Source: Liolophura sinensis (taxonomy: Eukaryota > Mollusca > Polyplacophora > Chitonida > Chitonidae). From it: DNA of 64,000 nt. Position numbers and translations under genes: made by a program. Shown in pieces: positions 2,983-22,121 of the stretch. How positions within the stretch are numbered: the first letter of the stretch is position 1; each line of letters begins with the position of its first letter. Location: assembly GCF_032854445.1 (NCBI RefSeq), contig NC_088299.1, positions 17,353,608-17,417,607 of the forward strand. The letters are read 5' to 3'. Under the pieces are notes generated by a model that saw only the letters and a list, made by a program, of their open reading frames with translations, was not told where the DNA came from and did not search any database.

Positions 2983-3158
2983 TTATGCGGTCTTGGCACG
3001 GATGGCCGCCCTCTTGCCAGTGACGGCCTGGAAACCAGATTTAATGCTGGCTACAGAACACCTGGAACCACATGTTTCACACTGTAAGAAGAATAACCGG
3101 GTGTCCTTCTGTAAAATGGTGTCTGGAGATCGGCATGTGTGGCATGTCACATACTCTT
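2983..3158 (-). CDS. EIF2S2: EIF2S2 coding exon 9 (zinc finger and stop)
   Basis: Encodes [20 protein letters not shown], then QCETC of the second zinc knuckle, and ends [11 protein letters not shown] before TAA at 2985-2983. Acceptor CTTTGCAG. Zinc ligands C282, C285, C303 and C306 are all present. Confidence 0.97.
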
Positions 3159-6100
3159 CTGCAAAGAAAAATGATAAAAGATCTCACATGAATCACAACT
3201 TCCCCAATAATAACCCAAGTAAGCTGCACACTGACTGAGCTCTTGGTATATGTATATAGTCCAATTATATATCTATTAAATGGATTCTGTTATTCACATA
3301 CTGTCACCGATACATGAGGCTGTGACAAGCAGTTCTATAAATGGCTCCATCTGTTAGCAAACTGCTGACATCCCATACTTTAACATGGACCATTAACATA
3401 TTACATAACATATTTGAAAAGCTGAATAGCACCAATACTTATTTGGAGACAACAAACTTCCACAACACAAACATGGTTATAAAAAAAGGGGGAGACAACT
3501 ACAATATCACAAATTATATTGCTAAGAAGTTATCTCCCATCTTGCCCATAACCAATTTGTACGTTAGTTTTCATTTTTTGTGAATGTCTACATGTGAACT
3601 AATAGTTCTATATGAACTTCACCTCTTGTCCTAAAATTGTAAGAGTCCACTTTCAGTTCAATTTTAAGTCCCCTTACAAAGCATGATGTGATATTAAAAC
3701 TCTCACTTCCTTTACCACTTGTAGCACCTGAACTTAGCCGCTTTTCAGGCTATTCTGTGCTAGTTGTCACATGAACCTTTAGGAACATCTTATTCACTGC
3801 GATCTTCAACAACAACATGCTTCAACAAGTTTCAAGGTGACAATAACTGACAGAACTTAAAGAATACTGCTCACTGTAACCTGCAATTTTGACAGTCACG
3901 TGTTCAGGTGACACAACATTGATCTAAGTTGGAGTTCCCAAATCTTTGACACATTGTTTGAGAGGTATCAGCGTAAAACATCAAAGTAAATGTAAAAAAT
4001 TATAAGCGAGTCTGACTACATACTGTATCAATGAGACACATGTACAGAAATATAGTCAGCAGGGATTGGTTTCACCCTCCTTTAGAGTTCAGTAAATTGT
4101 GTAAGCTGATAGTTTATTTGCCACCATGTATGTGCAACAGTGTTCTTCACAGCCTATGCTATACGCCACATATATTTATATAGCTTGAGTTGCCCAGCTA
4201 AGCAAAACATTCAGATTTACTTACTTATGTATCTCCTTAGAACATTTTCTATTTGTTTCTGCTGGAATCTGCCTTTAATAATTAACTGGTTATTTCCATC
4301 AACTGATCCGCTGCAAAGAGAAGACGGGAGACATTGTCAAGAGATATTAATCAATGGTGATTTTCGTTACATGCACTGAAAATTCATAAAACATTGAGTG
4401 AGTGAGTGCTTGGGGTTTAACGTCATGCTCAACAATTTTTCAGTCATATGACAACAAAGAAATCATTAGGGTGTATGTAATGTACCTCCTTGTTGCAGGA
4501 CGGATTTCCACCGCTCTTTTATCTAGTGATGCTTCACTGAGACGACTTACCGAATACAAATAAACTGCCCCACCCAAGCCATTATACTGATACAGGTCAA
4601 CCAGTCATTGCACTATCCCCTTCATGCTGAACGCCAAGCGAGGAAGTTACAACTTCCTCCTTTAAAGTCTTAGGTGTGACTCGACCCAGGATTGATCCTG
4701 GATCTACCAACTGTGCTATCCGGGCCGGTCATAAAAGACTGAAAGCACTTTGCCAGCTGGTAACTGGGAATTGTAGTGAGGCCTGGGGATACAGTTTTCT
4801 TCTGATCCTCTGTTACTGATTGCAGAAAATGCCCACCAACCTTGAAATGCTACAGCTGAACAAGGGGCCAGTCGTCAACAAAAAACGGAGGACTCTTCAG
4901 GTCACTCAGAATTATCCTTTAATTGTTGATCAACACCACTCAACAGTTCTAGTGGATTTAATGTAAAGTACTTATTATTCGCTGGAATTTATTTTCACGG
5001 ATTTTCTCAAAAACTATGTTCCCAGGAATTAATTTTCATGTATTTATGAGAATACTGAAGTACACATCTTATAATCTTAAACTTTTCCAAGATATAGCCA
5101 AAATTATTCAAGCACATAAAACAGGTATCATCATGGATGGCTATAATCCTCCTCTGTTTCTTGCGGTGTCGGTAATCCTCGTGATCTGGTTCAGAGATTA
5201 AAACAATGGGGGATGGATTATCACCACATCACCTGATTATCACCAATCAGGAAGATTACTTTCGCACCTACCATGAGCAGTACTTAAACACGTGTGACTT
5301 GTTTCTGAATCATTGATTAGCACTTAAAAACACCCAGCAAAGTGACCTGTCACCTTTCAAGCACTTCAACGCAAAACATATGAATTCACCATTATCAGCG
5401 CCAGTCACTCATTCTTTATCAAGCAACACATGAAATTTTGTTTTCAGTTTTAATCGTCCTCTGTAGTCTGTCAGAAACCGCAACCATTGCCATAGCTGTC
5501 AAACAGCCATTGTGTTGTTGTGCACACTTCACAGTTTGTTAGAAGCTCACTCATTGGACCAGACACGAGAGACACGGCCAATGGGATAGTGTGTATGACA
5601 TTCATTAGAATCCAGCACGTGCTGGTATCTACCTTTCTTTCACTTTACGGGCATAGCGAAGATTGATCAAACTAAAGATGAATGAACTCCCACTTTGTTT
5701 TATACTTACCAAGCCTTAGCACCAGAGTTTGTAAATATTTAAACCATACTTTCCTTTCCCAGCTGTTACAAAATTTAGCTGGCCCATCTGGCTTTTCTTA
5801 ACTCCCAATTCATTATTACTACTACCTGTAGTATATGATTCAATATAAGATATTTTTTTCGCTGGAATTATTTCCCTCCGGAAATCATTGACCACAAAAT
5901 CCCCCAAAATTAAGTCCACACGAAAATTAAGTACTTCACAGTACTTAAACAAACTACAGTGGAGTGCCTTTAAAATGACGTACCCCAAGCATCCATGTCA
6001 AAAGTGAAAGTTCCATCTGTGATTAATTTAACAAAACACGCCTCATAATAATGCATCACCTGCACAGGCTTCTAAGGGAGGCCAACGGATCACTTGCAAT

Positions 6101-9100
6101 GGAAGAAATGAATGTTCATCAGACTTACATATTACTTATTTTAGAGATGTTCACATTGGGAGAATCCACTGACCGAAGGATTCATATTTATTTACGTTAT
6201 TTATTCTTTTCACTGGTGTCTCATGCCGTATTCAAGTTTTGTGCCATATGACTGCATCAAGCTTTATGGCGGGTAATAACTGGCCAGTGTCTGTGGTTAA
6301 CCCACGGCCATCCGCAGGTTACTGGCAGATCTTCCTACCTGGAAGCCAGCATGAGTTGGACTTGAACTAACCACAAGCTAAAGGAGGCCTCTGCCTGATT
6401 AAGGGGCTAACACAGAGACAAAATGTTCTACAGATACGCTCAGGAAATCTACACACCATATATCACCTGCTGAAAATACCTTCTTGTAAACAGGTGAATA
6501 TGGGGATCAAACTCACCTGGTTCCCAGTTCTGCCAAGAGGAAAGCCAAGACGTGCTTAGGCTGTCTATGTAACCTGAAAGCATACATGTGTACAGGTATC
6601 ATGACATACACCTATGTATGATGAGAAAGCAACTTCAACATTAAAGGAAATGGCCAATTCATAAATTTCTCACACAGGTATGAGTGTGTCCACACATTTT
6701 AATTTAAGTGTTATGAGTTGTCATAGACTGATGGCATCTGCTAACAAAAAGAAAAACAACATAATGTCACCAGTCAGTTAATGGGTTGAAGAACATACAT
6801 GTGTACAGTACAGCCCAGACTGTCAAATGTCAAATGTTAACTGCTTGCATCGCACTCCTGGATACCACTTCCCACCTAGGACATCACCCCAACATAGACA
6901 GACAGCAGTCTTGTGTGGCCGTGCCTCGGCATGCAATAGCGCGCACTTCCCACCTAGGGCATCACCCCAACATAGGCAGACAGCAGTCTTGTATGGCCGT
7001 GCCCCTGTGTGCAATAGTGCGCACTTCCCACCTAGGACATCACCCCAACATAGGCAAACAGCAGTCTTGTATGGCCGTGCCCCTGCGTGCAATAGTGCGC
7101 ACTTCCCACCTGGGACATCACCCCAACATAGGCAAACAGCAGTCTTGTATGGCCGTGCCTCTGCATGCACTTCCCACCTAAGACATCACCCCAACATAGG
7201 CAGACAGCAGTCTTGTGTGGCCGTGCCTCTGCGGGATCGTTTTTTTTTTAAAATCTGACTGGTGTGTTTACCATGTTTTGAAGATTGGCCTATACCAATG
7301 ATTATCTACAGGCTTGCTGACCGAATTGTTTCCCAGGAAGTTACACACCAGAGGGATTTACGCAGAACCAGTGAATCCAGCCACAGCAGAAAGTTTTGTT
7401 CTTGACTGATTAGTTCTTGTTGGGTATGATTTTCAAAACCACAGAGTTTGTGTCAGTTAATACAACTTTACACTTGTAAGTATTATTTACTTACTCCAAT
7501 ACAACATGCCTATTGTTCTTCAGTTTTAGTAGCGTGACACTGCCAAACACTAAGCCTGCGTGAGTTCTTCTTCCAGGTCTCTGCATGACACTTCCGAATA
7601 TTTTAATTCAGTCTGGGATTAAGACAGGCATCTATCTTAATATGCAGATGAAGCCTACAATAATGCGCTTTAGCTGCTTTTTAAACACATGATGTTTTTT
7701 CACACTAGTAATCAAGGGTTTATTGATAAACGTATAGGCTATTCACATACATTTTGCCTCAACTTTTATTCAAGTTTACAATAAAATCTGATATCTAAAT
7801 TCATCTGGGTGTTGGTGCAAATCATGTCTTGTTAAGCACAAATTAACAGAGTGGCATAAATTCCATAAAGGCATTTTGTAGTAAGAGGGTCAAAAAAGGA
7901 AATATTTAAGGTACACTAGGCCTGGTAAGCCTCAGCCAAAAGCTCGAATAAAGTGTATTGGTGCAAATGGGAAATTATTAATTCTTTTTCCGTAAGAAAA
8001 ACCTTTCAAATGAATTGCTTTTTTTTTCCGTTCATGCATTTGCCATGCGTGTGCTTTAATTTCCTTCATGGTTTCGTACAACTACAAATTCTCCACCGTC
8101 ATATAGACAAAATTTAACTTGTCCTGTACTGTGTTTTTATTTTTTACCACTTCTGTACATGAAATATGAAATTCATATTGTAATACTGCGTTGTTGTTGT
8201 TGTTGCATTGTATGTTCGCATTAAAGCAGCAATTTGGTGTTCTAAATCATTGAGTGCCAGACAACTTTTCACTGGCACATGACTCCCACAGCCAGGAAAA
8301 CCTTTTATGCAAGAAACGAAAGACATTTATCCATCATTTAACTTCTTAATGGAGATGAAGATGACATGTAGTTTGAGCACTCATGATGATCAAATACAAA
8401 TCTCGCATGGACTCATTTGTAAATCACTACATAAAAGAAGATTTCCACTATACGATCAAAAACACACACATCAGATATTTTAGTTCAGTTTCATGTATCG
8501 TCTTAGTCCTTCAAAAATCTTCTAAATCATTCTAACAAAGAACTATATTTTCCATCGTCAACTTGCCAAAGCCAGCGAGTAGGCCTACCAATGCTCAGCC
8601 ATGAGTGTGTGATCAGTCACAATGGACGGATCACTCTGAAGGTGACTGTTGTGGAGCTCTCTACTGGCGCTTTTCAAACTACAAGATCTCTACAATCGCG
8701 CTCATCTCCTGCCTGGTTCAGACGTTTAGCCTGAGCTGTGCCGTACCAGCCTTTAAGATATACCTCTGACCTTGAACACAATAACTTACATTACAGTGCA
8801 ATCATATGAATCCATATAGATGTATATAGTACACATAGTTTTTTCACCTTTCATGTATAAACAACGTTTTTATCATTGGACTATCTAAAACCTTTCACAG
8901 AGAAATGGCTCACAGGTTTGCCAAGAGGCAGTGGTGAGAGGGGCTGCAAATAGGAATACACAGCATAAAAGGTAAGCATTACTTACATTCTACAGATTTC
9001 TGCAAAGTTTGCAAAAGATGATTTTTTGGTGCCCACCCGAAGTACTTGTGGTGGTCTCATGACGAACTTTTTCTTTTCGCCAGCCACCATGTCTGGGTTC

Positions 9101-12100
9101 TTCTCCCTCATGATGTCGAACACTCTGGTAAGCAGCTGAATTGCAAACACACAGGGGCAGTTTGTAACAGCACATGATCAAGGTCATTCAATGAAGATCA
9201 CTGATTGCAGAAAAATAATGAATAAAGTCAAACAATGACCACGTTCAAGCAATAAAGTACTGTAATTCGTCAACCTTTCCACATGTTTGCATAGCGCATA
9301 TTCAAGCATATTCCGAAGGCATCATTTTTAGATGACTGATAAAATTGTACTTTTTGTGAAGCCTTGAAACAGGCCAATTCAACCAATGTAGTTTTACCTC
9401 CTACATCAAATTAAAAATGTGCAAAATATGCACTGAAAGTTGCTTTTTCACATGTGAAAAGGGGGAGGAATTAAGGTAAGTCAAAAAATGAAGTCAGTTA
9501 CGCAACGTCTAGCGTGCATACCTCATCATATGTGTAGTCTCTGTCAGAACTGAGCCAGGCTTTGCCGCTGTTCATCATACCATCTAGTTTGTCATCCTTA
9601 GTCTGGTCCAGGCCTTCCTCTGTAACAAATACATGGTATGACTGAAGTCCAGGCATGGTGGTGTTGAACCTCAATAAATACACGGTATGACTGAAGTCCA
9701 GGCATGGTGGTGTTGAACCGCAATAAATACACGGTATGACTGAAGTCCAGGCATGGTGGTGTTGAACCGCAATAAATACACGGTATGACTGAAGTCCAGG
9801 CATGGTGGTGTTGAACCTCAATAAATACACGGTATGACTGAAGTCCAGGCATGGTGGTGTTGAACCTCAATAAATACACGGTATGACTGAAGTCCAGGCA
9901 TGGTGGTGTTGAACCTCAATAAATACATGGTATGACTGAAGTCCAGGCATGGTGGTGTTGAACCTCAATAAATACATGGTATGACTGAAGTCCAGGCATG
10001 GTGGTGTTGAACCTCAATAAATACATGGTATGACTGAAGTCCAGGCATGGTGGTGTTGAACCTCAATAAATACACGGTATGACTGAAGTCCAGGCATGGT
10101 GGTGTTGAACCGCAATAAATACACGGTATGACTGAAGTCCAGGCATGGTGGTGTTGAACCTCAACCACACATTCACATAAACGGCTGACCTCAGAGTGTA
10201 ATCTGCACAATGTATCATAGGATCAATCCTTTCAATATTAATTAATGTGCATAAACTTTAGAATATTTGACACTGGACTGCCTTACATGTACCTCCACAC
10301 ACACCTCCAGACAATCCTGATATTTATTAGTTCCCTACTACATGTAGTTTCACCCCACCTGTCTCCCCACGATCTTTCACCTCTCTCATTCAGCCTTACC
10401 TTCATCAACATCCTGATCATCAGCCTGATCTTGCAGAGCCTCTTCCACATCCTTTTTCTTCTTCCGTTTTTTCTTCTTCATCGGCAGATTCAGGTCAAAG
10501 TCTGTGCTGTCTAGAGCATCCGTCTGTTCTATTGCCCCTTCTGCCTCATCAGTGTCCTTCACCTCCTGTTGGAATGTCAGCAAAGATCACATCAGATATT
10601 AGATAAAGGCAATTTTTAAGCAACATTGCATTTTTTTAATTTCTGCTGAATAATATTCAACTTCCAAACCATCACCATCCACATGCTTCAGTACAAGAGA
10701 TGCAGTTATCTGTCTTACCACTGACACCTTGCAAGACATTTTAAGTCCTTTGGATTTTGTCATTTTGTCTCATGAATTAAACTTAAAGTGACTGACACCT
10801 GGTGTGTTTTAATATGGTTAAAATAGTGAACTGATGCAAGATCTAGACAGATCTCCATATGTATGGACATATGAATATATCTGATGAAATACTCAACCAG
10901 CAGCCAATAATCTTAAATGATCTTCCCATAAAGCCCCTATTCATCAATGGACTCTTCCACAATCACAATATACCTGCAGCAGACTAAAGGCAATACCAAG
11001 CAGCATACGAGAGGGTATGTAATTGGTCCAGTACATAGGTATAGTCTCAACTTTCAAGGGAAGTCACAGCTGGCCATACTGCTTAAATGGAAACAAACAA
11101 GTACCAGGCAAGGCCTTTAACTTTATTCTCCTTTTGACATGATGTTCAATGTGACGTAGGGTGAAAATAAATTACTAGGAAATACAACAAAATGATCCAC
11201 ATTTAAAGGAGTAAGGGTTGATATTTTACCATCTATACCTACAATCTAGATTCAAACTGGTCAGGTAACTATGTAGGAGGCGCAAATATAGCACTCTGAT
11301 CCTCCCCACAAATTCTCTCTGTGGATCACTGTACATCTGTTTAGAGACTTAGCCCGAAACATCACACTGCATGGAGAATGTTATACTTATGGCAAGCACT
11401 TGTTTGGTTCGCATGAAAACTTTGCTACTCAACCACACTCTTTTCAACGATTTTTACCCTGAAGTCTGTCAAATTTCATGGCAAGAACTGTATTCATAAT
11501 TCTGTGAAGATACTGTGTATCGCCTATTCAATAACAATGCCATCAAGACCAGAAAGATGGTAAAAAATCAAGTATTGCTTGATGACCCAGCTTTCAAAGT
11601 TAATAAGCCGCACGCTAAAAGATGGCTTAGCAACAGGAATGCTGTAGATGATGCGTATATGTGCTACACGTCTGCTGTTGCACGTTCGTCCAAAATAGGA
11701 GAAGCAGATCCAGCAGCCCAGAGGCTACACAAGTACTTTTGTGAGTCCAAGACTACATTAATGACAGCTTATATGCATGATGAACATACAAAATTAGCTA
11801 TCCTGAACAGTGAATTGCAAAAAGATTTGGTGTTTAGTGAAGTAAATCCACTCCTGGAAAACACGCTTAGCCATACGCCCAAAATTGAATACAGGCCAGG
11901 ATCCATTCAGAGAAATAAAAGAGGCTCTGGGTGACTCTGAGTTTGCATTAAAGGGGATCAATCTCGAAGAACTGAAAGGAAAAGAATCCTGTGATTTGGC
12001 TTCCATGATGGAAAAGTATATAAACAATTGTTATGAAAATATTAATTGCAGAATGCCTGAAACAAGTGATACATGTATGTTGCGTGACTTTGGCTGTATT

Positions 12101-14790
12101 CTAGAACCGTCAGTATTTTCTTAGAATGAACGAGAGGGAGACATGGCAGTAAAAAGGCTAGGTGACTTCTATTGTACAGATGAAAAGAACAAACTTGTGC
12201 GACAGTGTCACTGAGAAACAACACTGATTCCTCTTCTACATTGGAAGGAACTTCCTGACAATGAATGGCCTATATTTAGGCATGTTAAAGGGAAGTTGTA
12301 AAAAACTTGGTAGTAAAGAACTGTGTCGAAGGGTTCTGGCGATGCACTCAACTCATGCCAAATGTTGCCAAGTTATTTGAGATTGGCTTGTGTTTATGCG
12401 ACACAACTGTGGCATGTGAATGTGTCTTTCCTACACAGAATAAATCAATTACCTGTTTGAGAGCCTCTATGAAAGCAGACAGGCTAGATCTTTTGATGAA
12501 AATTTGTATCATAGGACTAAATCTCTCTCTGTGTGATCCAAGTAAAGCAATACAGGGTAGGCAATCTGTCTACGTTAGACAGTTAGGTAGGCTAGCTACA
12601 CCATACAGGTCAACTTGCCAAAGAAGAAAGAGCAAAGCACTTTTTTTTTCAAAAAGATGAATTCATCACCAAATAGTTCCATGAAAGTTTCATGGATCAG
12701 AAAATAAATGTGCTCAACTGAGGTTTACTGCTGTATGCAGTTTATTTGTTGTACTGAAATGAATAAAGATCGTGAGACACTGTGTTCAAGCTCAACTGAT
12801 TTATGGTAAATTTTGTTTAAACGTTGGTACATTGTACTGTTTTTATATCAATCAGTACTCCTCCCACTAAGATTTGTATGAGTACAATACTTCATCCATA
12901 AAACCAGAAAAATATCTTTTGTCATACAAGGACAAAACAGCCCAAACTCAAACTTGATATATATTTCAACTTTCAATTCAGAAGTTGGAAATGTCTGAAA
13001 GTCAACAACAGAGCAAAATTGTTACAATCTTGTTGAAAAGGGAAGAAAAGGCCCCAAACTCCAAGCTTGCAATGGTGAAGCCAGGTATTACAGTAAGTTT
13101 CAATTCAATAAAATGAGCCATTATTAAAAAAAAACTCCCTCCCCACCTTTAGGAAAACACAAAGAAATCAGTCTTACAGGCACAGGTTCTGAAACTTCTT
13201 CCATATCAAATGTTTTTTTCTTTTTCTTCTTCTTCTTCATTCCAAGAGAAAAGTCCATAGACAAATCTGTAGGGTGGATTATTAAAACCCAGAAAAATAA
13301 AACATAATATGTTTAATATGAGGAAATTGATAAATGATGTTCAAAAATTAACTTGTATCCTCCTCCGACCAAACTGAAGTATACCCAGATGAGCAAAGGA
13401 TCATATCCAAACTATACAAGTCAAAACACTGTTGCTGAATCATGAATGTTACCCAATATCTATGAATCACCAAAACAGAATGTGCATTGATTTGCACAGA
13501 TAGGGCTTTTGACTCTCCACATTTGGTTACAAATTCGCTATATACAAATATTTACCCTAATTCTTCAACGTTTTCAACCGCCTCTGCAATTAATCTTTTG
13601 AAACATTTTGAGAGACTATGGGCTGTAGAGAATAATTTGCACAATTTAACTATTGTGCAGCTTGAATCTTGACACAAATCATTTTTAGCTTCATTTTCAT
13701 AATAATTATATGCATAAATTCCACTGAAAAAAGTGTTTCAGTGGTTGAACAGAATTAGTGTACACTTTGAACTACAGAACAATGGGAATTAACTAAAGCT
13801 GTGTTAGATGAGTCAATAGTAATTGTAATTGACTGATGTTTATGATATTTACAAATATGACTTGCCATCATCAATTTTGTCTGTGGACTGAGCCGTTGGT
13901 TCAGATGTCTGTTCAGTGGTTTCCTCTTCATCTTCCTTTGGTGGCTCTTCTACACCAAATGTCGCCCCTTCTGCATCAAATGGGGTCTTCTTTTTCTTCT
14001 TCTTTTTCTTTAGAGATGGATCGAATGACAACTGAAACGCGACACATGGATTCAAGTTAAGTCACAAACAAATGCTTGCTTAAGTTCTATACATGTGTAT
14101 GTAGGACTACTTAATTTTTTTAAGATTATGACCATTTTAATTGGCTCTTTTCACTCCTGTATTCAAGGTTTAGGTAAGAAGACACTTGTATAAGGCATTG
14201 CTTAGGTAGCCATCAAACACTTTGAAGCCTTTATCAGACATTGTTTTGGTACCTATCAAACACCTGGCCAAAGTTTTAGCCAAACTTCCTTAAGACATAA
14301 GGCTAGAAGCTACAGAGCTCTTCTATACACCACACATCACATGCATTCATGTACACAAGTAGTCACACTGAAAGCAGTAATACTGTATATTAAGAACTGT
14401 TTGTAAATTAACAAATTAGCAGTATATAATATGTCTATGTTTTTTCACCATCTTACTACATATTGCAGCTCTACATACATTGTAAATGTGACTGTCAACA
14501 TGAAAATTAGGGCATCTGTCTGGGATATGGTCCTCACAAAAATAAATCTGGTGGATGCGTGGATGCCAAATAGCCTCACCGCCAGTTTATTGTTATTCAT
14601 TCCATGGATTAGTTAAGTTGACCAGCTTCGTACTGTAGTGCTATGCTAAATCTAGTGCCAGTTTCATTCGTGGTGCTGGCATACCAAGAACGTTGTTGTT
14701 GTACAGCCCCTTGAGACATCAAGTTTGCGCCACCTTTCAATCCACAAACAAAACATTGGATTTTTCTCTTACCAGATCGTCGTCTGCCAT
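2983..14790 (-). CDS. EIF2S2: Eukaryotic translation initiation factor 2 subunit beta (nine coding exons)
   Basis: Beta subunit of the cytosolic eIF2 heterotrimer, which delivers initiator Met-tRNA to the 40S ribosome; in the family this subunit contacts eIF5 and eIF2B through lysine boxes. Exons in transcript order: 14790-14773, 14031-13866, 13266-13178, 10565-10400, 9619-9522, 9135-8987, 6573-6517, 4310-4225, 3158-2983. Together 1005 nt, 334 residues, close to the 333 I recall for the human protein. Seen: three polylysine boxes (residues 14-21, 72-79, 121-129), an acidic linker, the central domain with [15 protein letters not shown] and LRRYIKEYV, and a zinc finger with C282, C285, C303, C306. 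All junctions keep phase; acceptors are AG and donors GT except intron 2, which uses GC. The start is the only ATG giving the MADDD-type N-terminus and lies in a short first exon. Identity is secure; expression is not shown. Confidence 0.97.
3159..4224 (-). other. EIF2S2: EIF2S2 intron 8
   Basis: Donor GTAAGT at the 4224 side, acceptor at 3159. AT-rich; I see no repeat or gene in it. Confidence 0.85.
4225..4310 (-). CDS. EIF2S2: EIF2S2 coding exon 8
   Basis: Encodes [16 protein letters not shown] and [13 protein letters not shown], the end of the winged-helix core. Acceptor CTCTTTGCAG, donor GTAAGT. Confidence 0.95.
4396..4730 (-). mobile_element. tRNA-derived SINE, family 1, with deleted tRNA head
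   Basis: On the minus strand it starts with a tRNA-like head (GACCGGCCCGGATAGCACAG) and ends with the tail that reads GAGTGAGTGAGTGCTTGG on the plus strand. Compared with the copy at 49179-49507 it lacks about 23 bp between two CTAC repeats, which removes the anticodon-arm region between the A and B boxes. A TCATAAAA direct repeat on both sides may be its target-site duplication. Confidence 0.85.
6270..6412 (-). mobile_element. SINE family 2 fragment
   Basis: Shares ACCCACGGCCATCCGCAGGT, then a GGCAGATCTTCC-like and a CAGCATGAGTTGGACTTGAA segment with the copy at 26578-26842, but lacks both ends. Old and truncated. Confidence 0.75.
6517..6573 (-). CDS. EIF2S2: EIF2S2 coding exon 7
   Basis: 57-nt exon encoding [18 protein letters not shown]. 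Acceptor TGCTTTCAG, donor GTGAGT; phases fit exons 6 and 8. Confidence 0.95.
6574..8986 (-). other. EIF2S2: EIF2S2 intron 6
   Basis: Holds the 78-bp minisatellite C (6866-7238). The remaining 1.7 kb is AT-rich with no gene recognised; a weak resemblance near 8700-8770 to the eIF2-beta C-terminus was considered and rejected. Confidence 0.85.
6866..7238. repeat. Minisatellite C, 78-bp unit
   Basis: CACTTCCCACCT recurs at 6866, 6944, 7022, 7100 and 7168, giving four 78-bp steps with the last shortened by 10 bp. GC-rich compared with the intron. 78 is a multiple of three, so overlapping 115-143-codon frames stay open on both strands; these are by-products of the repeat. Confidence 0.95.
8987..9135 (-). 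CDS. EIF2S2: EIF2S2 coding exon 6
   Basis: Encodes [31 protein letters not shown] and [14 protein letters not shown], the most conserved part of the eIF2-beta core. Acceptor GCAATTCAG, donor GTAAGT. Confidence 0.96.
9136..9521 (-). other. EIF2S2: EIF2S2 intron 5, with a dispersed repeat
   Basis: Most of 9280-9480 matches, with divergence, the segment at 40345-40555 on the same strand: a core with CATGTTTGCA, TTCAAGCAT, GACTGATAAA, then AAATTAAAAATGT and TGCACTGAAAG. An interspersed repeat of unknown class. Confidence 0.7.
9280..9480. repeat. Dispersed repeat, copy 1
   Basis: Aligns by eye with 40345-40555. Both end in a TGCACTGAAAG...TTCA(C/T)ATG segment followed by a G-rich GGAATTA(A/G)GGTAAG. 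A short piece of the same end is seen at 26440-26490. No open frame or clear terminal repeat. Confidence 0.65.
9522..9619 (-). CDS. EIF2S2: EIF2S2 coding exon 5
   Basis: Encodes [13 protein letters not shown] and [14 protein letters not shown], matching the family's aromatic Y-TYEE motif at the start of the conserved core. Its acceptor (TTTGTTACAG) directly abuts the 49-bp minisatellite; donor GTATGC. Confidence 0.94.
9620..10399 (-). other. EIF2S2: EIF2S2 intron 4, largely minisatellite D
   Basis: Starts with GTAAGG at 10399 and ends in TTTGTTACAG at 9620. About 540 of its 780 bp are the 49-bp array, which reaches to the acceptor itself. Confidence 0.9.
9628..10168. repeat. Minisatellite D, 49-bp unit, abutting an exon
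   Basis: Eleven near-identical 49-bp units containing GGTATGACTGAAGTCCAGGC and ATGGTGGTGTTGAACC. Variation is confined mostly to two sites (TACACGG/TACATGG and ACCTCAA/ACCGCAA). In gene orientation the unit contains GTATTTATTGAGG, which resembles the true acceptor GTATTTGTTACAGAGG at its edge. Confidence 0.95.
10400..10565 (-). CDS. EIF2S2: EIF2S2 coding exon 4 (lysine box 3)
   Basis: Acceptor CCAACAG, donor GTAAGG. Encodes [10 protein letters not shown], then DFDLNLPM and KKKKRKKKK (121-129), then an acidic stretch ending DQDVDE. The final G joins exon 5 to make Glu. Confidence 0.93.
10566..13177 (-). other. EIF2S2: EIF2S2 intron 3, hosting a hAT remnant
   Basis: 2.6-kb intron. The central part is a decayed hAT-type transposase in antisense orientation; the rest is AT-rich with nothing recognised. 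Confidence 0.85.
11515..12657 (+). pseudogene. Decayed hAT-superfamily transposase, antisense within EIF2S2 intron 3
   Basis: Two coding remnants in different frames. 11515-11934 encodes a segment with [30 protein letters not shown] and [20 protein letters not shown], which resembles the middle of animal hAT-like proteins of the ZNF862/ZMYM6 type. 12307-12657 encodes [20 protein letters not shown], then [12 protein letters not shown] and [12 protein letters not shown], the C-terminal hAT dimerisation region, with an expected Arg of the CER motif replaced by Cys. Frame changes near 11930 and stops between 12124 and 12306 show that it is dead. I see no terminal inverted repeats, so the element's limits are uncertain. 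Family assignment rests on remembered motifs. Confidence 0.75.
13178..13266 (-). CDS. EIF2S2: EIF2S2 coding exon 3 (lysine box 2)
   Basis: Acceptor CCCTACAG, donor GTAAGA. Encodes LSMDFSLGM, eight lysines (72-79), then [12 protein letters not shown]. Its leading AT completes an Asp codon begun in exon 2. Confidence 0.93.
13267..13865 (-). other. EIF2S2: EIF2S2 intron 2 (GC-AG)
   Basis: Begins GCAAGT after exon 2 and ends CCCTACAG. The only donor that keeps the reading frame is this GC site. Contains one copy of a dispersed repeat (13556-13690). Confidence 0.8.
13556..13690. repeat. Dispersed repeat 2, copy within EIF2S2 intron 2
   Basis: ACCCTAATTCTTCAAC, TTTTGA(A/G)ACATT(T/C)TGAG and GAATAATTTGCACAATTTA match the segment at 48640-48780 in order. 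A reverse-complement piece is at 49545-49610. Unknown class. Confidence 0.7.
13866..14031 (-). CDS. EIF2S2: EIF2S2 coding exon 2 (lysine box 1)
   Basis: Residues 7-61 plus one base. Acceptor CGCGTTTCAG. Carries LSFDPSL followed by eight lysines (14-21), then an acidic, Thr/Glu-rich linker ending TDKIDD. The phase-compatible donor is GCAAGT, not GT. Confidence 0.93.
14032..14772 (-). other. EIF2S2: EIF2S2 intron 1
   Basis: Donor GTAAGA, acceptor CGCGTTTCAG. AT-rich; small open frames at 14431-14616 and 14609-14806 have no support. Confidence 0.85.
14773..14790 (-). CDS. EIF2S2: EIF2S2 coding exon 1
   Basis: Six codons, MADDDL, followed by a GTAAGA donor. Very short coding part of the first exon, joined in phase 0 to exon 2, whose first residues LSFDP match the conserved IFDP motif before lysine box 1. 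Confidence 0.9.
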
Positions 14791-14860: not shown

Positions 14861-14869
14861 CCTTTTATA
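14861..14869 (-). promoter_or_regulatory. EIF2S2: TATA box, EIF2S2
   Basis: TATAAAAGG on the gene strand, 71 bp upstream of the EIF2S2 ATG. The usual spacing would place transcription start near 14838 and give a 5' UTR of about 50 nt. Confidence 0.55.
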
Positions 14870-14892
14870 GTCCACACCACGTTTTTCTTCTC

Positions 14893-14901
14893 GTTGCATC
14901 A
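14893..14901 (-). promoter_or_regulatory. CARE-like (ATF4/C-EBP) element
   Basis: TGATGCAAC on the EIF2S2 strand fits the TGATGXAAX consensus of C/EBP-ATF response elements used by ATF4. It lies about 25 bp upstream of the EIF2S2 TATA box and inside the shared promoter. A nine-base match alone is weak; position and gene identity make it notable. Confidence 0.4.
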
Positions 14902-14911
14902 GCTAACCTCT

Positions 14912-14919
14912 ACTTCCGG
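14912..14919. promoter_or_regulatory. ETS/GABP-type site ACTTCCGG
   Basis: Reads CCGGAAGT on the minus strand, the core of ETS-family sites that are common in animal bidirectional housekeeping promoters. It overlaps a GTAAGG that could serve as a 5' splice site for ZFAND1. Confidence 0.5.
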
Positions 14920-14939
14920 TAAGGATGCCGGAGAATAGA

Positions 14940-14947
14940 TATAAAAT
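14940..14947 (+). promoter_or_regulatory. ZFAND1: TATA-like box, ZFAND1 side
   Basis: TATAAAAT on the plus strand, 222 bp upstream of the ZFAND1 ATG. It would suit a start near 14970; competing TATA-like sequence lies at 15093-15103. Confidence 0.35.
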
Positions 14948-15168
14948 ACGCATCGACGGCAGTGGACTAATAAACAGAAATATCTTTTCAGCTAATTCTA
15001 AAGGTTTATCGCTTCAAATATTCATATCCTAGCTATTTGATTTTGAATCATTTGGTTAATGGCTTACTTTTAAATTTTGTTCTCCTCTGGTCTATATATA
15101 TAAAAAAAATCCGTTTTCATATTTAATGTATTTAATGTGTGCTCATTTCCAGTGGCGGGAACTGGACG

Positions 15169-15223
15169 ATGGCTGAAGTTCTTGCTGGACAACACTGCTC
15201 TGTCAAAATTTGTAAACAGCTAG
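15169..15223 (+). CDS. ZFAND1: ZFAND1 coding exon 1
   Basis: MAEVLAGQHCSVKICKQL plus one base; carries the first two Cys of AN1-1. Context ACGATGG around the ATG is acceptable. Donor GTCAGT. Confidence 0.9.
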
Positions 15224-18200
15224 GTCAGTGGGATAACAAAAAAAACCTCTGGAAACAAACATACACTTACTACTGAAGAGAATTAACCCCAAATCCAAGT
15301 ATTTAATTCCTCATGGTGTTGCCAACTAGCCCGCCATCTGAGGCGAGCAGATGTACAACAACAACGACCATCATGCAAAATCATGCAAATTGACTAGGTC
15401 TATAAAACTATGTTAGTTTTTACATCGCCCTCGAATGAAAAGAACTAATGTATCCACAAGAGTCTCTTCTCAGTTATCATATTTTGAAAATAAAATATGC
15501 CTAGCAGCCTTCTGACATTCCAATGGATACATGTTGGCCCTTGGATCCGTCGATTGCCTTATAAATTAGACGTTTCAAGCAAGTGATATATCTAACAGAG
15601 GTCCCTTCCTAAAACACGGGATATAAGTAAACACTGGTGGCTATTTTAACTCCTCTCTATGTATTGGGTTGGCGAAATATTATAGCCACAGGGGCAACCT
15701 ATGATGAACCCTACACCAATTCACGTCTTGTCCGATAAGTCCTTTAGAAATGATGACTGCAGTCCAAAACAGCTGTGAACTCGTCACACACAGCTGTCAA
15801 GCCGTCGCACACAACATCCCAGATATATTCCAGTCGGTAAAGGCACACCGGCCCCGTATTTACGACATGGCAGATCATTTCTAACCAAGGTGGCAGTTAG
15901 GCTAATCTTTTTAGGTTTAACATGCTTGCACCATCAAAGAACAGTAACATTTTTAAGACCCGTCACTGTGGTGAGGGCAAGATAGCTGCTCCTTTAGCGG
16001 TGACCATGAGGTGAATTTGGGTCTCGTGTGTCCGTCATAAGTGAAATATATGTGTTATTTTGCGTGTGTGTTAACATTTGTTTTGGACTGCTGAGATCAT
16101 TTAGAAAAACATCATCTGACTCGATATGAAATGGTGTATGGTGTACCATAGGCTGCTGCTGTGGCTATGACACTCCACCAGATCTGTATAGAGAGAGGAG
16201 TTGAAATAGCCAACTGTGGTTAGGATATAAGCTGAGCTGGCATTTCAGAAGTCTGGCAAGTTCTCAGTGTTATTAGTAGCTCCTGTAAAGTCAAGTCTTT
16301 TAACCACATCATGTTGTGAAAGCCCACCACGTTGTCTTGTCCAGACATATGTGAACTCACCAGTGTTTTAAAATGCCAACTCATCTTACTTTCCTATCTG
16401 CACTTAGAACCTCTGTAGTGTTTCTACCGGACGTTTTTTCAATCTCGGCACTCCATAGCAGGGGGAATCAGACTTTTGTAGGACCAAAATGGGCTTCTGT
16501 CCTGCTGAAATTGGTTATTTATAGACCGAAAATATGCTAAATTTTTAACAGGCAGGTATGTTTGGCTCCTCAAAGCTTAGCCAAGTATTCTTTTTGGTGG
16601 AGACTTTCCCCATGCTGATTACTATTCTTCTTCCACTATGAAGACAGACGTGCAAAATAGTCTGCCTGGCACGGTGCTTATGCACTCTAAAGTTAATTAT
16701 AGTGAACATGGTTACCAGTTTGAAGTTTGTTGGGTAGTGGACTAGAAATGAATGGTATAAGCCTAGCAGGATACAACTGTGGTCCAACAAATGCTTGATC
16801 CCCTCGGCTAGTGATTGTTGATTGAGAGAATGTGAGGAAGGAAACACTATGGAGCGATTAAGTGTGGACAGAAAAAATGCTTTTGTGAAGTGACGTCAAA
16901 TGTTGGTGTACAGCGTCTAATTGATTAGGCTAATCTGTTGTGCTGTTTCAAAATTCATAATTTATTTAACATTAATTTAAGTTATTTTCATTAAAGTAAA
17001 CTGCGATTTAACAATCTGATAGTGGGCGATCCCATTCACCTTTAATGAAATAACTTTCAAATGTGGTTGAATTTTTCAGTGGATAGGCAGAGGAAAGAAT
17101 CTAATGAATATCAATTCAAAATCACATCTGCGCAAGCTTCTTAGCTGTTTCTGATAAATTTGCAACTCTGCTCTTTGCTTCCGATGATTTATCCCACATG
17201 CGCTACATGTAATGCACAGTTTTGCTCAGTCATCTGATTGGGCTCAGATGATGATAGGGAAACAAGGAATTAAGAATTATGATTAATTAAGTATGCCTAA
17301 AGCATAATAAGTAAAGTTTTTGTAAATATTTCATTCTCTTGTTACATGTGTGACAGTTTCTGTTGCTTTAATTGCTAGAAACACAATGGCTGATTTTTAT
17401 ACTTGTTTCTGCAGATTTTCTACCATTTACCTGTGATGGATGTGGTCAGATATTCTGGTAAGTTTATGTATATGTATATGTGTTTAAAAGGGCATACAGA
17501 TTTGCACCTGGTGTCCGTGGCAACACATAATGAAGAGATATGTCACCATGGTAAATGTGTGTAACATAGTAGAGTTGTTTGCGACAGCTTTGTAAAATAG
17601 TGCCCTGTGTTAAGTTGATATCATATGCAACGACACGACATTCTCTGCCCTGTTCTGTTTGTGCATTATGATGTCACAATAGCCAAAAAGCGTCTGAAAT
17701 TAGGACATCCAAATGGATCCAAAGTCTTGCCCATGCTCTGTGCCAATTTGCAAGGGGAGAGAACTGATGAAGGTGCTCTGTTCACACTACCATTTATTGA
17801 AAACGACCTACAGCTATGTCACAATATCCTAAGTTACTGGTACCTTCCTTTTTCTACTGCACAAAAAAATCATGATGTGGCTTTTCGGAATCTAATATGG
17901 CTGTCACTACGTCAGTACATGTACTATTGTGTCTCATTGGGCAGTTTCATTAAATTTGCATTACAACTCTTAAAATGGTCTTCCACCTGCACTGCATTAC
18001 TTTTATACAAGAGCATGCCTTTTAGAACTTTTTATTACCTTTTTTCAGTTTGGATCACAGAAGCAAAGACGCTCACAGCTGCTCCATGGTTTGTATTTCT
18101 GGGCCAGTTTATAGTTTCATCTGTAAGGTCAGAGCCATATCTAGAGCCTGTTTAGCTGTTTAGCTCAGGAAAATATTTTGGGCATAAAACTAATCAAGCT

Positions 18201-21200
18201 GTAATAAAACTAACATGTGGACAGAAAAAAAAAATGTGATTGTTTACGAACATTTTTTTATACAAGTTTCCTTCATTGATAAACTTCAAAGCTCTCAGAA
18301 ATCATCTTTTCTGTTGCATTTGATAACATTTTTTTAGGCACCATCTTAGTATGTAACATATTTCAACCAGTGAAAAGTGAAGGAGATGTTGTTAGCAGTA
18401 AGACTATCCTTTTTAAATGTGAACCAGATATAACTGCAGGATTGTGCTCTGAGATTTAATTGGATGACCTATTTAAGTTTAAACTGTAACTGAGTCAAAC
18501 TATCCGTAGTGTCCATTTCACTCATTCAGTCATCTTGCGAAGTGAAAGTGAAGTGTTGAGATTGTGAGTGGATGCTATAGACCTGATTCCAGTTGGTTAT
18601 ATAGTGGTTAAATTCTTGTTTTTAGGTACTCGTAGACAAGACCCTACCAGATTATGAGGGACCAAAGTCCTACCCATGCTCCATGCCAGACTGTAAGGGG
18701 AGAGAACTGATGGAAGTGATCTGTCCACACTGCCAGTTGAATTTCTGCCTGAGGTACCTGGATAAGTCTGTGTTGAACTGTTCCTGTTTACGTGCTACAT
18801 CTGACTAATGCATATTCATGAACTGAAATATTACTTGTGGCACTGAAATTCAAGTAGGATATTATCTCACCTTCTAAAGAAGCCTTAAAACACTTTTCAA
18901 AGATCAAAATCTGACTCTCAGAATTGGGCAGAATGAGTAAACTTAGTCATGGACCAAATTAAATTCAAGCATAGTTCGATCCATTGATTGGATAAAGGCA
19001 GATCTGATTGAAAATACAGCTGGGTTGTTTTATCCATTATGGTCATTGTGGACCCTGACATAACTATTACTCTGGTACAGCTCAAAACAGTGGCCAGCAT
19101 ATACATGTATTGCAAAAGTAAATCTTTTAGAATGCCCGTTTCTTTAGTTGACTTTGAAGAAAGTACACCTGTGCTGCCGAGGTCTATGTATAAAGTTATG
19201 ACTTCCTGTTAAGTGGCTATGTATGATCATAGATTTAGCCAGAAGTGGAAATCAGGCCATCTCATTTTCAATTTTCTGCTATTTTCCCTATCTCTCCCAT
19301 GTTAATATTGTCAGAATAGGCTATCTATCCCACCCTCACCCCAACCTCCCGGCTAAACCTATACATACAGTATGCCTTCACATGGTGATGATTCTGGTCA
19401 GGTGCTAACCAATAGCTGTGATGTCTGTTCCATAGGTTATTCAGTACAACATGAAAACCTATGGAAAAAAACCCAGCATTAAGGAACTGTCTTGACATTA
19501 CAAATGTACATTTCAGCCATCGACATCAGGTAGAACATGACTGTGAAAAGTTAAACAGGGGCCCTCCTCCTGTGTCAAAAACTGCCGAACACGTGAAGCA
19601 AATCTTAGGTAAGTAAACCACACCTTTATTTCTTTTTTTTTTTCAGTTTACGCTGTAAATTCCTCAGCTGCGTACTACACTCTTGGAGTTATTTTCTTCC
19701 CCTGGCCTGAATGCTGGATTTGTTCTGATCCAGGCTTCTGAGGGGTGTTGCACTTGTAAAGTTTGCAGGAGTGGGACATGAGTCTGGCATTAACAGACAT
19801 GTGGCACTACTTTGCACTTGCATGTTGGTACTTTACTTCTGCCTTTATTCTCATAAATTCTAGCATTTTGACATTGTTTCTAGTGCAGAATATTTGGTAC
19901 TTAAATGGTGCAGGTCATTTGTAGACTAGTCATTTATTTGAGTGGATTTTTGCATTGTACTGAACAACACTTCATTTATACAACGGTCGCCAGCTTGGTG
20001 GTGGGAGGAAACTGGGCAGAGACCTGGGGAAGCTATCTGCTGGCTACTGGAAGACCTTGGAAGAACGTGGAATTTAGCTGACAGTGAATGCATTGTTAAA
20101 GGCTCCTGGGTTATTGTTGTACATTTTTAAGTGTTGATCTTTACTGTTACATCATTGACAGAAGCCAAACAGAACCAGCCTCCAAAAGCCAGGAAAGGTC
20201 GGGGGCCAAAATCCAGTAAGACAGCTGCCAAAGTGGCTCTGATGAAACTAAAAAATGAAAGCTTGTGGAGACAAGGGGCTACCTGAGACGGAGAAGGTGT
20301 ACTTTAATGTGGCTCTTCCGCTAGATGGACCTGTCAGACATAAGGCCATGTTTTTCTCCAAGGTTAGACAATAGTTTTAATTGCTATTTAAGTACTTTTA
20401 GTTCATTTTGTTCGGTGCTGAATATTTTTTTCTGCAGTGTGTTATGTATACAGAAAAAGGCACGACTGCGATCTGCAAGTAACATGTTTGCCTTATATGA
20501 AATTATTGTTATTTACTTATTTGATTGGTGTTTTACGCCGTACTCAAGAATATTTTACTTATGCCATGGCAGCTATCATTATGGTGGCAGGAAACCAGCC
20601 AGAGCCCGGGGAAACCCACCACCATTCAGAGGTTGCTGGCAGATCTTCCCACGTAAGGCCGGAGAGGAAGCCAGGGAGAGCTGGATTCACAACAGCCACA
20701 TTAGTGGGAAGCTCGTGGGTCATTACGGAAATTGTGGATCAGATATTGTACTCTAAGGAGAAATAAGACAAAGAAAATGTTGCTTTCTGGCAATATGGCG
20801 TAATAACTTTTATGATTATGTGTATTTATTTGCAGACATGGAGCATTGGTCGCATTATTGACAACATTGCGACTTTGTGTGACCTGCGTAACGACAACAA
20901 CACAGCAGCTCTCAAGGTGAGGTGGTCACTGAATTACATGTCCTTCCCTGTGTTCTCAAATAACTTGACAGATATATGTGTCAGATGCCACTGAAATGAA
21001 GCCTGTTAGAATAATATCTGTAACAAAGGATGCTTGGTTGATTTACAAAGCTTGATCAGGGAATTTATGGCTTCCTTTGCTGTCACTGCGTGCAGGGCCT
21101 CGGTGACGATGACGCTTGTGTGGCATTTGTGGAGTCTGGCATTTTTTGTAGACCACTTGTTTTCCACCAATATTGTGTGCATATTTCTGTGTGTTGCATG

Positions 21201-21840: not shown

Positions 21841-21876
<36 letters not shown>

Positions 21877-22121
21877 TATCATGTGTGAGGTCTTTTTCGG
21901 CAGTAGTTTTATTGTATTAACACTCTCTTTTAATGTGATCATATGTTTTTATTTTCCAGAAGCTGCGACTATTTGATGGAGACAGTGGAAGGTTGTTGTT
22001 AACAAGTGAGTGCGTGGACAGTTTTCTCAACAAAGAGGAACTTTTTAGTGGCTCAACAGTAATATTGGAGTATGTGAACGAGGGCATAGATGTAATAGAC
22101 AATACAGATGTTTACAGGTAA
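15169..22121 (+). CDS. ZFAND1: AN1-type zinc finger protein ZFAND1 (eight coding exons; one frame-breaking base)
   Basis: Double AN1 zinc-finger protein; in mammals ZFAND1 recruits p97/VCP and the proteasome to arsenite-induced stress granules and aids their clearance. Exons: 15169-15223, 17415-17457, 18049-18088, 18626-18753, 19517-19608, 20162-20362, 20836-20916, 21960-22121. With one surplus base removed from exon 6 they total 801 nt, 266 residues, near the 268 I recall for human. Two AN1 fingers keep the exact CX4CX9CX2CX4CX2HX5HXC spacing: C10, C15, C25, C28, C33, H36, H42, C44 and C64, C69, C79, C82, C87, H90, H96, C98. Next come KTAAKVALMKLK and a ubiquitin-like C-terminal half with WSIGRIIDNIA, LRNDNN and VILEYVN. 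The start gives the family's short MAE...GQHC N-terminus. Odd points: a frameshift at 20250-20255 and a tail that runs into a tandem repeat. Confidence 0.94.
15224..17414 (+). other. ZFAND1: ZFAND1 intron 1
   Basis: 2.2 kb, AT-rich; I see no gene, SINE or tandem repeat. The minus-strand open frame at 16545-16847 has no recognisable similarity. Confidence 0.8.
17415..17457 (+). CDS. ZFAND1: ZFAND1 coding exon 2
   Basis: 43 nt, FLPFTCDGCGQIF plus split codons at both ends (Asp and Cys). Acceptor TTTCTGCAG, donor GTAAGT. Confidence 0.94.
17458..18048 (+). other. ZFAND1: ZFAND1 intron 2, containing an exon-4 ghost
   Basis: Donor GTAAGT, acceptor CTTTTTTCAG. Holds the decayed exon-4 copy and nothing else recognised. 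A 176-codon open frame crosses it in a non-homologous frame. Confidence 0.85.
17712..17800 (+). pseudogene. ZFAND1: Decayed duplicate of ZFAND1 exon 4
   Basis: About 82 bp align without gaps to 18657-18740, with roughly four fifths of positions identical by eye; the shared core is AAGGGGAGAGAACTGATG. In the homologous frame it reads DPKSCPCSVPICKGRELMKV and then CSHY where the real exon has CPHC, so a zinc-binding Cys is lost. No acceptor immediately precedes it and in-frame stops lie just upstream. It sits before exon 3, out of order. Confidence 0.85.
18049..18088 (+). CDS. ZFAND1: ZFAND1 coding exon 3
   Basis: 40 nt, completes Cys33 and encodes LDHRSKDAHSCSM, the His/Cys end of AN1-1. Acceptor CTTTTTTCAG, donor GTTTGT. 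Confidence 0.92.
18089..18625 (+). other. ZFAND1: ZFAND1 intron 3
   Basis: Donor GTTTGT, acceptor TTTTTAG. No internal feature seen. Confidence 0.85.
18626..18753 (+). CDS. ZFAND1: ZFAND1 coding exon 4 (AN1-2)
   Basis: Encodes VLVDKTLPDYEGPKSYPCSM, then PDCKGRELMEVICPHCQLNF, with five of the eight ligands of AN1-2. Acceptor TTGTTTTTAG, donor GTACCT. A decayed copy lies upstream at 17712-17800. Confidence 0.95.
18754..19516 (+). other. ZFAND1: ZFAND1 intron 4
   Basis: Contains at 18880-18960 a piece of a dispersed motif (AAAACACTTTTCAAAGATCA, then CTCTCAGAAT) that recurs at 43975-44040 and, inverted, at 39800-39850 and 43640-43690. Otherwise nothing seen. Confidence 0.75.
19517..19608 (+). 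CDS. ZFAND1: ZFAND1 coding exon 5
   Basis: Encodes HRHQVEHDCEKL, closing AN1-2, and a Pro-rich linker RGPPPVSKTAEHVKQIL. Acceptor CATTTCAG, donor GTAAGT. Confidence 0.95.
19609..20161 (+). other. ZFAND1: ZFAND1 intron 5, with SINE fragment
   Basis: 19984-20078 carries a strongly diverged minus-strand piece of SINE family 2 (GGTGGGAGGAAACTGGGCAG and a GGAAGACCTT-like stretch). No gene. Confidence 0.7.
20162..20362 (+). CDS. ZFAND1: ZFAND1 coding exon 6, with +1 base frame disruption
   Basis: Encodes a basic linker (KARKGRGPKSSKTAAKVALM, then KLK), then in the next frame MKACGDKGLPETEKVYFNVA and LPLDGPVRHKAMFFSK. The switch falls in a run of six A at 20250-20255, where five would keep the frame. 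Read as it stands, the frame ends at TGA (20284-20286). Acceptor CATTGACAG, donor GTTAGA. Length 201 nt, 200 expected from the phases. Confidence 0.9.
20363..20835 (+). other. ZFAND1: ZFAND1 intron 6, about half SINE
   Basis: Donor GTTAGA, acceptor TTATTTGCAG. Contains the SINE copy at 20510-20742. Open frames of 109-143 codons here run through the SINE and are not genes. Confidence 0.85.
20510..20742 (-). mobile_element. SINE family 2 copy in ZFAND1 intron 6
   Basis: Plus strand begins TTTGATTGGTGTTTTACGCC and continues through the TACTCAAGAATATTTTACTT tail region to GGGTCATTACGG of the tRNA-like head. The head is diverged and the A-box end is missing. Confidence 0.85.
20836..20916 (+). CDS. 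ZFAND1: ZFAND1 coding exon 7
   Basis: 27 codons: TWSIGRIIDNIATLCDLRND and NNTAALK. Acceptor TTATTTGCAG, donor GTGAGG. Matches the conserved WSIGKAID/LRNDNN region. Confidence 0.96.
20917..21959 (+). other. ZFAND1: ZFAND1 intron 7
   Basis: Holds an (AT)n microsatellite at 21845-21873. The 74-codon open frame at 21034-21258 has no recognisable similarity. A stretch at 21450-21560 is CpG-richer than its surroundings but carries no motif I can name. Confidence 0.8.
21845..21873. repeat. (AT)n microsatellite
   Basis: About 14 uninterrupted AT dinucleotides in ZFAND1 intron 7. Confidence 0.95.
21960..22121 (+). CDS. ZFAND1: ZFAND1 coding exon 8 and stop
   Basis: Encodes KLRLFDGDSGRLLL, then FSGSTVILEYVNEG, and a lineage-specific tail IDVIDNTDVYR before TAA at 22119-22121. 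The tail coincides with the first unit of a degenerate tandem repeat. Acceptor TATTTTCCAG. Confidence 0.94.
   Translation, partial: KLRLFDGDSGRLLLTSECVDSFLNKEELFSGSTVILEYVNEGIDVIDNTDVYR

What the first reader, a model, noticed from the sequence alone, without database searches (positions are those of the whole stretch)
2983..22121. eIF2-beta and ZFAND1 as a head-to-head pair: possible co-regulated stress-translation unit
The two genes are complete, divergent and 378 bp apart between start codons. eIF2 is the translation factor whose phosphorylation triggers stress granules; mammalian ZFAND1 helps clear stress granules through p97 and the proteasome. I recall them on different chromosomes in human (20 and 8), so the pairing would be lineage-specific. 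A shared promoter could balance initiation-factor supply with granule clearance. The arrangement is seen; the functional link is inference.
Basis: partly seen in the sequence, partly recalled or inferred. Interest (0 to 1): 0.75.

Follow-up and report, generated by a model that had tools for sequence, protein, structure and literature searches.

The report
Housekeeping gene pair sharing a promoter
In a chiton genome a translation-factor gene and a protein-quality-control gene sit back to back over a 378-base gap that looks like an ordinary shared housekeeping promoter, with no sign of stress control, and the two may be old neighbours rather than a new mollusc pairing.

Summary
The pair is real: eIF2-beta (9 exons, minus) and ZFAND1 (8 exons, plus), each found at one locus only, start codons 378 bp apart as stated. 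One detail is wrong: ZFAND1 is not complete as assembled; its frame slips by one base in an exon-6 A-run (20250-20255). The genome is Liolophura sinensis (published as L. japonica). The spacer resembles a divergent housekeeping promoter: CpG-protected, the only ACCGGAAGT (ETS-type) site in 184 kb, an E2F-like site, TATA-like boxes on both sides. Five stress-element patterns gave no match, so nothing supports a stress unit. Random placement alone predicts about 120 such gaps here. 'Lineage-specific' is doubtful: human 8q21 and 20q11, home of ZFAND1 and EIF2S2, hold several paralogous pairs, and each gene lies near a CHMP4 copy. In the chiton, 6 of 7 families from those regions have a member on the pair's scaffold or one other (9.3% of the genome), but only one of the six is on the pair's own scaffold, and the other scaffold was picked out after the first four searches. 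Old linkage is likely, not shown; co-regulation is untested.

The parts
14773..14790 (-). eIF2-beta exon 1 (start codon at 14790-14788)
13866..14031 (-). eIF2-beta exon 2, first lysine block; followed by a GC donor
13178..13266 (-). eIF2-beta exon 3, second lysine block
10400..10565 (-). eIF2-beta exon 4, third lysine block
9522..9619 (-). eIF2-beta exon 5
8987..9135 (-). eIF2-beta exon 6
6517..6573 (-). eIF2-beta exon 7
4225..4310 (-). eIF2-beta exon 8
2983..3158 (-). eIF2-beta exon 9 with zinc ribbon and stop codon
14791..15168 (.). 378-bp spacer between start codons, probable divergent promoter; CpG o/e 1.08 against 0.33 for the window
14862..14869 (-). TATA-like box TATAAAAG on the eIF2-beta side (5% of shuffled spacers also hold one)
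14912..14920 (-). ETS-type site ACCGGAAGT, the only one in 184 kb
15093..15106 (+). TATA-like stretch on the ZFAND1 side, a TA run that matches on both strands
15154..15161 (+). E2F-like site GGCGGGAA, one of two in 184 kb
15169..15223 (+). ZFAND1 exon 1
17415..17457 (+). ZFAND1 exon 2; exons 1-2 join to encode the LDFLP motif of the first AN1 finger
18049..18088 (+). ZFAND1 exon 3
18626..18753 (+). ZFAND1 exon 4, second AN1 finger
19517..19608 (+). ZFAND1 exon 5
20162..20362 (+). ZFAND1 exon 6, holds the frame slip
20250..20255 (+). A-run at which the assembled ZFAND1 frame slips by one base
20836..20916 (+). ZFAND1 exon 7
21960..22121 (+). ZFAND1 exon 8, end of ubiquitin-like domain and stop codon

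Best explanation
An ordinary divergent (head-to-head) housekeeping gene pair. A short, CpG-protected region with an ETS-type site recruits polymerase for both genes: eIF2-beta leftwards from about 30 bp downstream of the TATA-like box at 14862-14869, ZFAND1 rightwards from about 30 bp downstream of the one at 15093-15106. Both would be broadly transcribed because both products serve growing cells; shared open chromatin suffices, and no specific stress logic is needed. The pair is probably not a mollusc invention: both genes belong to a linkage set that in vertebrates was doubled onto 8q21 and 20q11, where each region kept one of the two. Shown: gene structures, gap, single locus, motifs, placement of syntenic families. 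Inferred: start sites, shared control, ancestry of the linkage and of the adjacency.
For: Gene models and gap. Spacer CpG o/e 1.08 against 0.33 in the window; 193 of 9153 windows of this size in 184 kb (windows holding N dropped) reach it with at least 10 CpG, in 11 patches, of which 9 lie in the left flank and 2 in the 64-kb window, one being the spacer. ACCGGAAGT once in 184 kb, in the spacer; GGCGGGAA twice, once in the spacer. A review gives ~23% of the housekeeping genes analysed with divergent TSS within 300 bp and names GABPA, E2F1 and E2F4 motifs as enriched in bidirectional promoters (PMC10887517, passages). Ancestry: CHMP4, AHCY, TP53INP, an E2F-4-like and a WWP/ITCH-type gene on C9, CBFA2T on C5, TPD52 on C3; vertebrate gene lists.
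Against: Bidirectional promoters typically lack TATA boxes (PMC11676430, passage), while here both sides have TATA-like strings. The spacer is AT-rich (GC 0.34). The ETS-type site ends in A where the strict GABP string of the review, CCGGAAGTG, has G. No transcript data: a pyrimidine tract and AG just upstream of the ZFAND1 start codon would allow a 5' UTR intron and a more distant start. The ZFAND1 frame is broken as assembled. For ancestry: of the 7 chosen families only CBFA2T lies on the pair's own scaffold, 5 have a member on C9 and 1 lies on C3; C9 was added after the first four searches. No other lophotrochozoan was examined.
Confidence: 0.72

Rival explanations
1. Stress-translation unit: the shared promoter co-regulates eIF2-beta supply and stress-granule clearance.
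For: Head-to-head arrangement; ZFAND1 recruits p97 and the proteasome to arsenite-induced granules in mammals (PMC8999021, passage).
Against: 0 matches to 5 stress-element patterns in the spacer (weak negative); the phosphorylated subunit is alpha, not beta; housekeeping-type features explain the promoter.
Confidence: 0.06
2. Chance neighbours with two independent promoters that happen to lie 378 bp apart, without shared elements or conserved adjacency.
For: About 121 such gaps expected by random placement in this genome; each side has its own TATA-like string.
Against: One CpG-protected stretch with one ETS-type site spans the gap; both genes map to vertebrate regions with paralogous content, near CHMP4 genes.
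Confidence: 0.2
3. ZFAND1 here is a decaying pseudogene, and the arrangement has lost its meaning on that side.
For: Frame slip in exon 6; no second locus found in the assembly.
Against: Both sides of the slip are open and conserved, splice borders are intact, domains score well; a one-base change in an A-run of an assembly from 14X HiFi data is more simply an assembly error or an allele.
Confidence: 0.07

Closest known systems
Bidirectional (head-to-head) housekeeping promoters, as reviewed in PMC10887517 (passages seen)
   Same: Divergent genes, start codons under 1 kb apart, CpG-protected spacer, ETS-type and E2F-like sites, both genes broadly needed
   Different: Spacer is AT-rich (GC 0.34) with TATA-like strings on both sides; the ETS-type site is one base off the strict GABP string; start sites and expression not measured
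Vertebrate 8q21 / 20q11.2 regions with paralogous genes (ZFAND1 near CHMP4C; CHMP4B-RALY-EIF2S2)
   Same: Both genes of the chiton pair lie there, each near a CHMP4 paralogue
   Different: In vertebrates they are on two chromosomes, and in the chiton CHMP4 is on C9, not beside the pair on C5
Yeast Cuz1 / mammalian ZFAND1 and AIRAP group of AN1 proteins (PMC5035049, passages seen)
   Same: DFLP motif in the first AN1 finger and a C-terminal ubiquitin-like domain as in ZFAND1 and Cuz1
   Different: Human ZFAND1 has RDFLP; the chiton protein has the LDFLP of Cuz1 and AIRAP

Membership tests
eIF2-beta (EIF2S2) | eIF5/eIF2B-type domain | tested here: met
   PF01873 1.3e-41
eIF2-beta (EIF2S2) | Full-length match to EIF2S2 with lysine blocks and C-terminal zinc ribbon | tested here: met
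   PDB chain residues 4-332 of 333 aligned, 1.6e-117; three lysine blocks read
ZFAND1 | Two AN1 zinc fingers | tested here: met
   PF01428 7.8e-26, 2 stretches; PDB ZFAND1 fingers
ZFAND1 | ZFAND1-type ubiquitin-like domain | tested here: met
   PF25327 1.4e-21
ZFAND1 | Uninterrupted reading frame | tested here: not met
   Frame slip in exon 6 as assembled; assembly error or allele not excluded
Bidirectional promoter | Divergent genes with transcription starts under 1 kb apart | tested here: inconclusive
   Start codons 378 bp apart; transcription starts not mapped
Bidirectional promoter | CpG-rich or CpG-protected spacer | tested here: met
   CpG o/e 1.08 against 0.33; but GC is only 0.34
Bidirectional promoter | ETS/GABP-type site | tested here: met
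   ACCGGAAGT at 14912-14920, only copy in 184 kb; next base A, so not the strict CCGGAAGTG
Bidirectional promoter | Lack of TATA boxes (usual, not strict) | tested here: not met
   TATA-like strings on both sides; a tendency only (PMC11676430)
Bidirectional promoter | Co-expression of the two genes | not testable with these tools
   No expression data held
Stress-responsive co-regulated unit | Stress-response elements in the shared region | tested here: not met
   0 hits for 5 patterns (HSE, CRE, CARE, MRE, ARE); patterns recalled, weak negative
Ancient 8q21/20q11 linkage set | Families of those regions concentrated on the pair's scaffold or a partner scaffold | tested here: inconclusive
   6 of 7 families with a member on C5 or C9 (1 on C5, 5 on C9), 1 on C3; C9 singled out after the first four searches
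Ancient 8q21/20q11 linkage set | The two genes adjacent in other lophotrochozoans or in amphioxus | not testable with these tools
   No other animal genome was available to me

The most novel reading that the evidence does not exclude
EIF2S2-ZFAND1 is an ancestral bilaterian head-to-head pair, kept together by a shared ETS-driven promoter for over 500 million years in lineages such as chitons and split in vertebrates only because genome duplication let each daughter region keep one gene.
Probability: 0.3. Interest if true: 0.5.

Novelty: new member of a known kind. Interest (0 to 1): 0.28.

Why it matters
As a single pair it is ordinary. If the adjacency proves ancient, it would be a clean case of a bidirectional promoter resolved by reciprocal loss after whole-genome duplication, and so a direct test of whether shared promoters hold gene order together. 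It also illustrates that 'on different human chromosomes' is weak evidence for a recent pairing.

Tried and rejected
Rejected: a stress-response promoter (no elements found). A second ZFAND1 or eIF2-beta locus: none found at E <= 0.001. The C6 match to PF01873 is not among the matches of the eIF2-beta protein; I take it as eIF5 (inference, not tested). PF01428 alone gave 4 matches, none in the window; its ZFAND1 exons are short, and the protein search found them. My first exon borders for ZFAND1 were off by a base in places and were corrected. Of 15 promoter patterns, a TOP-like pattern was found once with 1.1 expected, and NRF1, YY1, CCAAT and DRE were not found.

The first form of my synteny idea, that neighbour families would lie on C5, failed in its first four searches: Snf7, AdoHcyase, E2F and HECT had no match on C5; C9 stood out instead. 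The next three were TAFH (C5 and C9), TPD52 (C3) and DOR (C9). HECT gave 62 matches on many contigs, so a member on C9 is weak evidence. The binomial value of 4e-6 for 6 of 7 therefore overstates the case. The ORF listing of the 60-kb flanks was cut in the output, so flank genes may have been missed.

Literature on the pair: EIF2S2 with ZFAND1 gave 2 papers, EIF2S2 with 'bidirectional promoter' 2 papers. In PMC2851616 and PMC4975395 I read passages and saw no report of the pair; PMC8967306 and PMC2647550 were not opened. Of 116 papers naming ZFAND1, 25 were listed. For the 8q/20q paralogy, one search found 0 papers and one search listed 10 of 101, none opened; that these are genome-duplication regions is recalled, supported by gene lists only. 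ARAGORN and Rfam (gathering scores) found nothing in the window.
Full report
Source. The window lies at C5:17353608-17417607 of a genome of 609,464,459 bases in 632 contigs. The published assembly of the chiton Liolophura japonica has 609.5 Mb in 632 scaffolds; its scaffold_13 is 19,479,325 bp and scaffold_5 37,343,639 bp (PMC11068029, passages), exactly the lengths of C5 and C9. A correction renames the species Liolophura sinensis (PMC12441733, whole text). The window is therefore from a chiton, on the smallest of 13 pseudomolecules.

Genes. eIF2-beta runs leftwards from 14790 to 2983 in 9 exons and encodes 334 residues without a stop. Pfam and PDB comparisons identify it. One intron has a GC donor. 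ZFAND1 runs rightwards from 15169 to 22121 in 8 exons with two AN1 fingers and the ZFAND1 ubiquitin-like domain. Its first finger carries LDFLP, the motif proposed to define the Cuz1/AIRAP/ZFAND1 group; human ZFAND1 has RDFLP (PMC5035049, passages). As assembled, the frame slips by one base in an A-run of exon 6; the first 150 codons are open in one frame and the last 116 in another. Because the gene is otherwise intact and no other locus was found in the assembly, an assembly error or an allele is more likely than a pseudogene; no reads were available.

Spacer. 378 bp separate the start codons. CpG o/e is 1.08 against 0.33 for the window; 193 of 9153 same-size windows in 184 kb (windows with N dropped) reach that value with at least 10 CpG, in 11 patches: 9 in the left flank, 2 in the 64-kb window, one of these the spacer. 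So such patches are not rare in the region, but within the window the spacer stands out. ACCGGAAGT occurs once in 184 kb, in the spacer; GGCGGGAA twice, once there. The ETS-type site is followed by A, so it is one base off the strict GABP string CCGGAAGTG. TATAAAAG faces eIF2-beta (5% of shuffled spacers hold one) and a TA run faces ZFAND1. Patterns for heat-shock, CRE, ATF4, metal and antioxidant elements gave 0 hits each, as did NRF1, YY1, CCAAT and DRE. All patterns are consensus strings from recall, so negatives are weak. E2F and GABPA motifs are among those enriched in bidirectional promoters (PMC10887517, passages); TATA boxes are not typical there (PMC11676430, passages).

Is the gap surprising? 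No. Random placement of 28,010 genes gives about 121 divergent gaps of this size or less, and in human ~23% of the housekeeping genes analysed had divergent TSS within 300 bp (PMC10887517, passage).

Is the pairing lineage-specific? Printed gene lists argue otherwise. A human deletion of 181 kb on chromosome 8 lists CHMP4C, IMPA1, SLC10A5, SNX16 and ZFAND1 (PMC6110470, passage); a cattle list runs SNX16, CHMP4C, RF00015, ZFAND1 (PMC6895209, passage); another runs CBFA2T2, NECAB3..., E2F1, PXMP4, ZNF341, CHMP4B, RALY, EIF2S2, ASIP, AHCY, ITCH..., TP53INP2 (PMC4975395, passage). Human chromosome 8 between 80 and 99 Mb holds CHMP4C and ZFAND1, E2F5, WWP1, RUNX1T1 and TP53INP1 (PMC2851616, passage). 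So five pairs of related genes (CHMP4B/C, E2F1/5, ITCH/WWP1, CBFA2T2/RUNX1T1, TP53INP2/1) link the two regions; that they stem from genome duplication is recalled. By the printed orders, each gene of the chiton pair lies within two genes of a CHMP4 copy.

Test in the chiton. I searched 7 families from those regions in G000. Snf7: 8 matches at 4 places, one on C9 at 10.91 Mb, CHMP4 type. AdoHcyase: 5 matches, all at C9, 12.31 Mb. E2F: 5 matches at 4 places, one on C9 at 0.59 Mb, closest to E2F-4 of two PDB chains matched. HECT: 62 matches, one gene on C9 at 27.92 Mb, closest to WWP2, WWP1 and Itch, none on C5. TAFH: 5 matches, on C5 at 16.33 Mb and C9 at 20.45 Mb, which I read as CBFA2T and TAF4 by eye. 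TPD52: 2 matches, both C3, a miss. DOR (TP53INP): 1 match, C9 at 12.89 Mb. So 6 of 7 families have a member on C5 or C9, which are 9.3% of the genome, but only CBFA2T is on the pair's own scaffold, and C9 was singled out after the first four searches; the binomial value of 4e-6 is thus too favourable. An OSGIN-like gene (name by eye; Pfam says pyridine-nucleotide oxidoreductase) lies 31 kb left of the eIF2-beta stop codon; OSGIN2 is listed at 8q21.3-q22.1 (PMC2702084, passage). A published analysis reports large-scale duplication of two molluscan linkage groups, MLG11 and MLG17, on separate pseudochromosomes in this species, and argues for duplication against fission (PMC12005716, passages). 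That might be C5 and C9, but the passages do not name the chromosomes.

Conclusion. A real divergent housekeeping pair with a likely shared promoter; the stress unit is unsupported; recency is doubtful; ancient linkage is likely and ancient adjacency possible.

Noticed in passing
window 17715-17792 (+): A decayed extra copy of ZFAND1 exon 4 (82% identical over 78 bp) lies in intron 2, upstream of exon 3.
   Followed up: partly
window 9627-10164: An 11-copy, 49-bp minisatellite fills the end of eIF2-beta intron 4 and stops 7 bp short of exon 5; the acceptor may have arisen from the repeat (inference).
   Followed up: partly
window 12289-12660 (+): Remnant of a hAT transposase dimerisation domain inside eIF2-beta intron 3 (PF05699 2.3e-6).
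   Followed up: partly
window 26979-32728 and 57425-62660: Two very long minisatellites (51 bp x about 113; 86 bp x about 61) in a stretch where I recognised no gene among the ORFs listed.
   Followed up: no
L001-L002, C5:17301480-17312296 (-): Two long single-frame receptor-like ORFs left of the window that resemble Toll-like receptors (by eye), one with a TIR domain.
   Followed up: partly
L009-L011, C5:17442826-17462567 (+): Pieces of an adenylate cyclase right of the window (one piece tested: PF00211; the rest by eye).
   Followed up: no
C5 and C9 of G000: Genes of one vertebrate-like linkage set are shared out between two scaffolds; eIF2-beta, ZFAND1, AHCY and TP53INP each matched at one place only. 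This looks more like a split than the partial duplication that PMC12005716 argues for, but four genes are few.
   Followed up: partly
window 21401-22019: Second CpG-rich patch of the window, in the last intron and the start of the last exon of ZFAND1.
   Followed up: no
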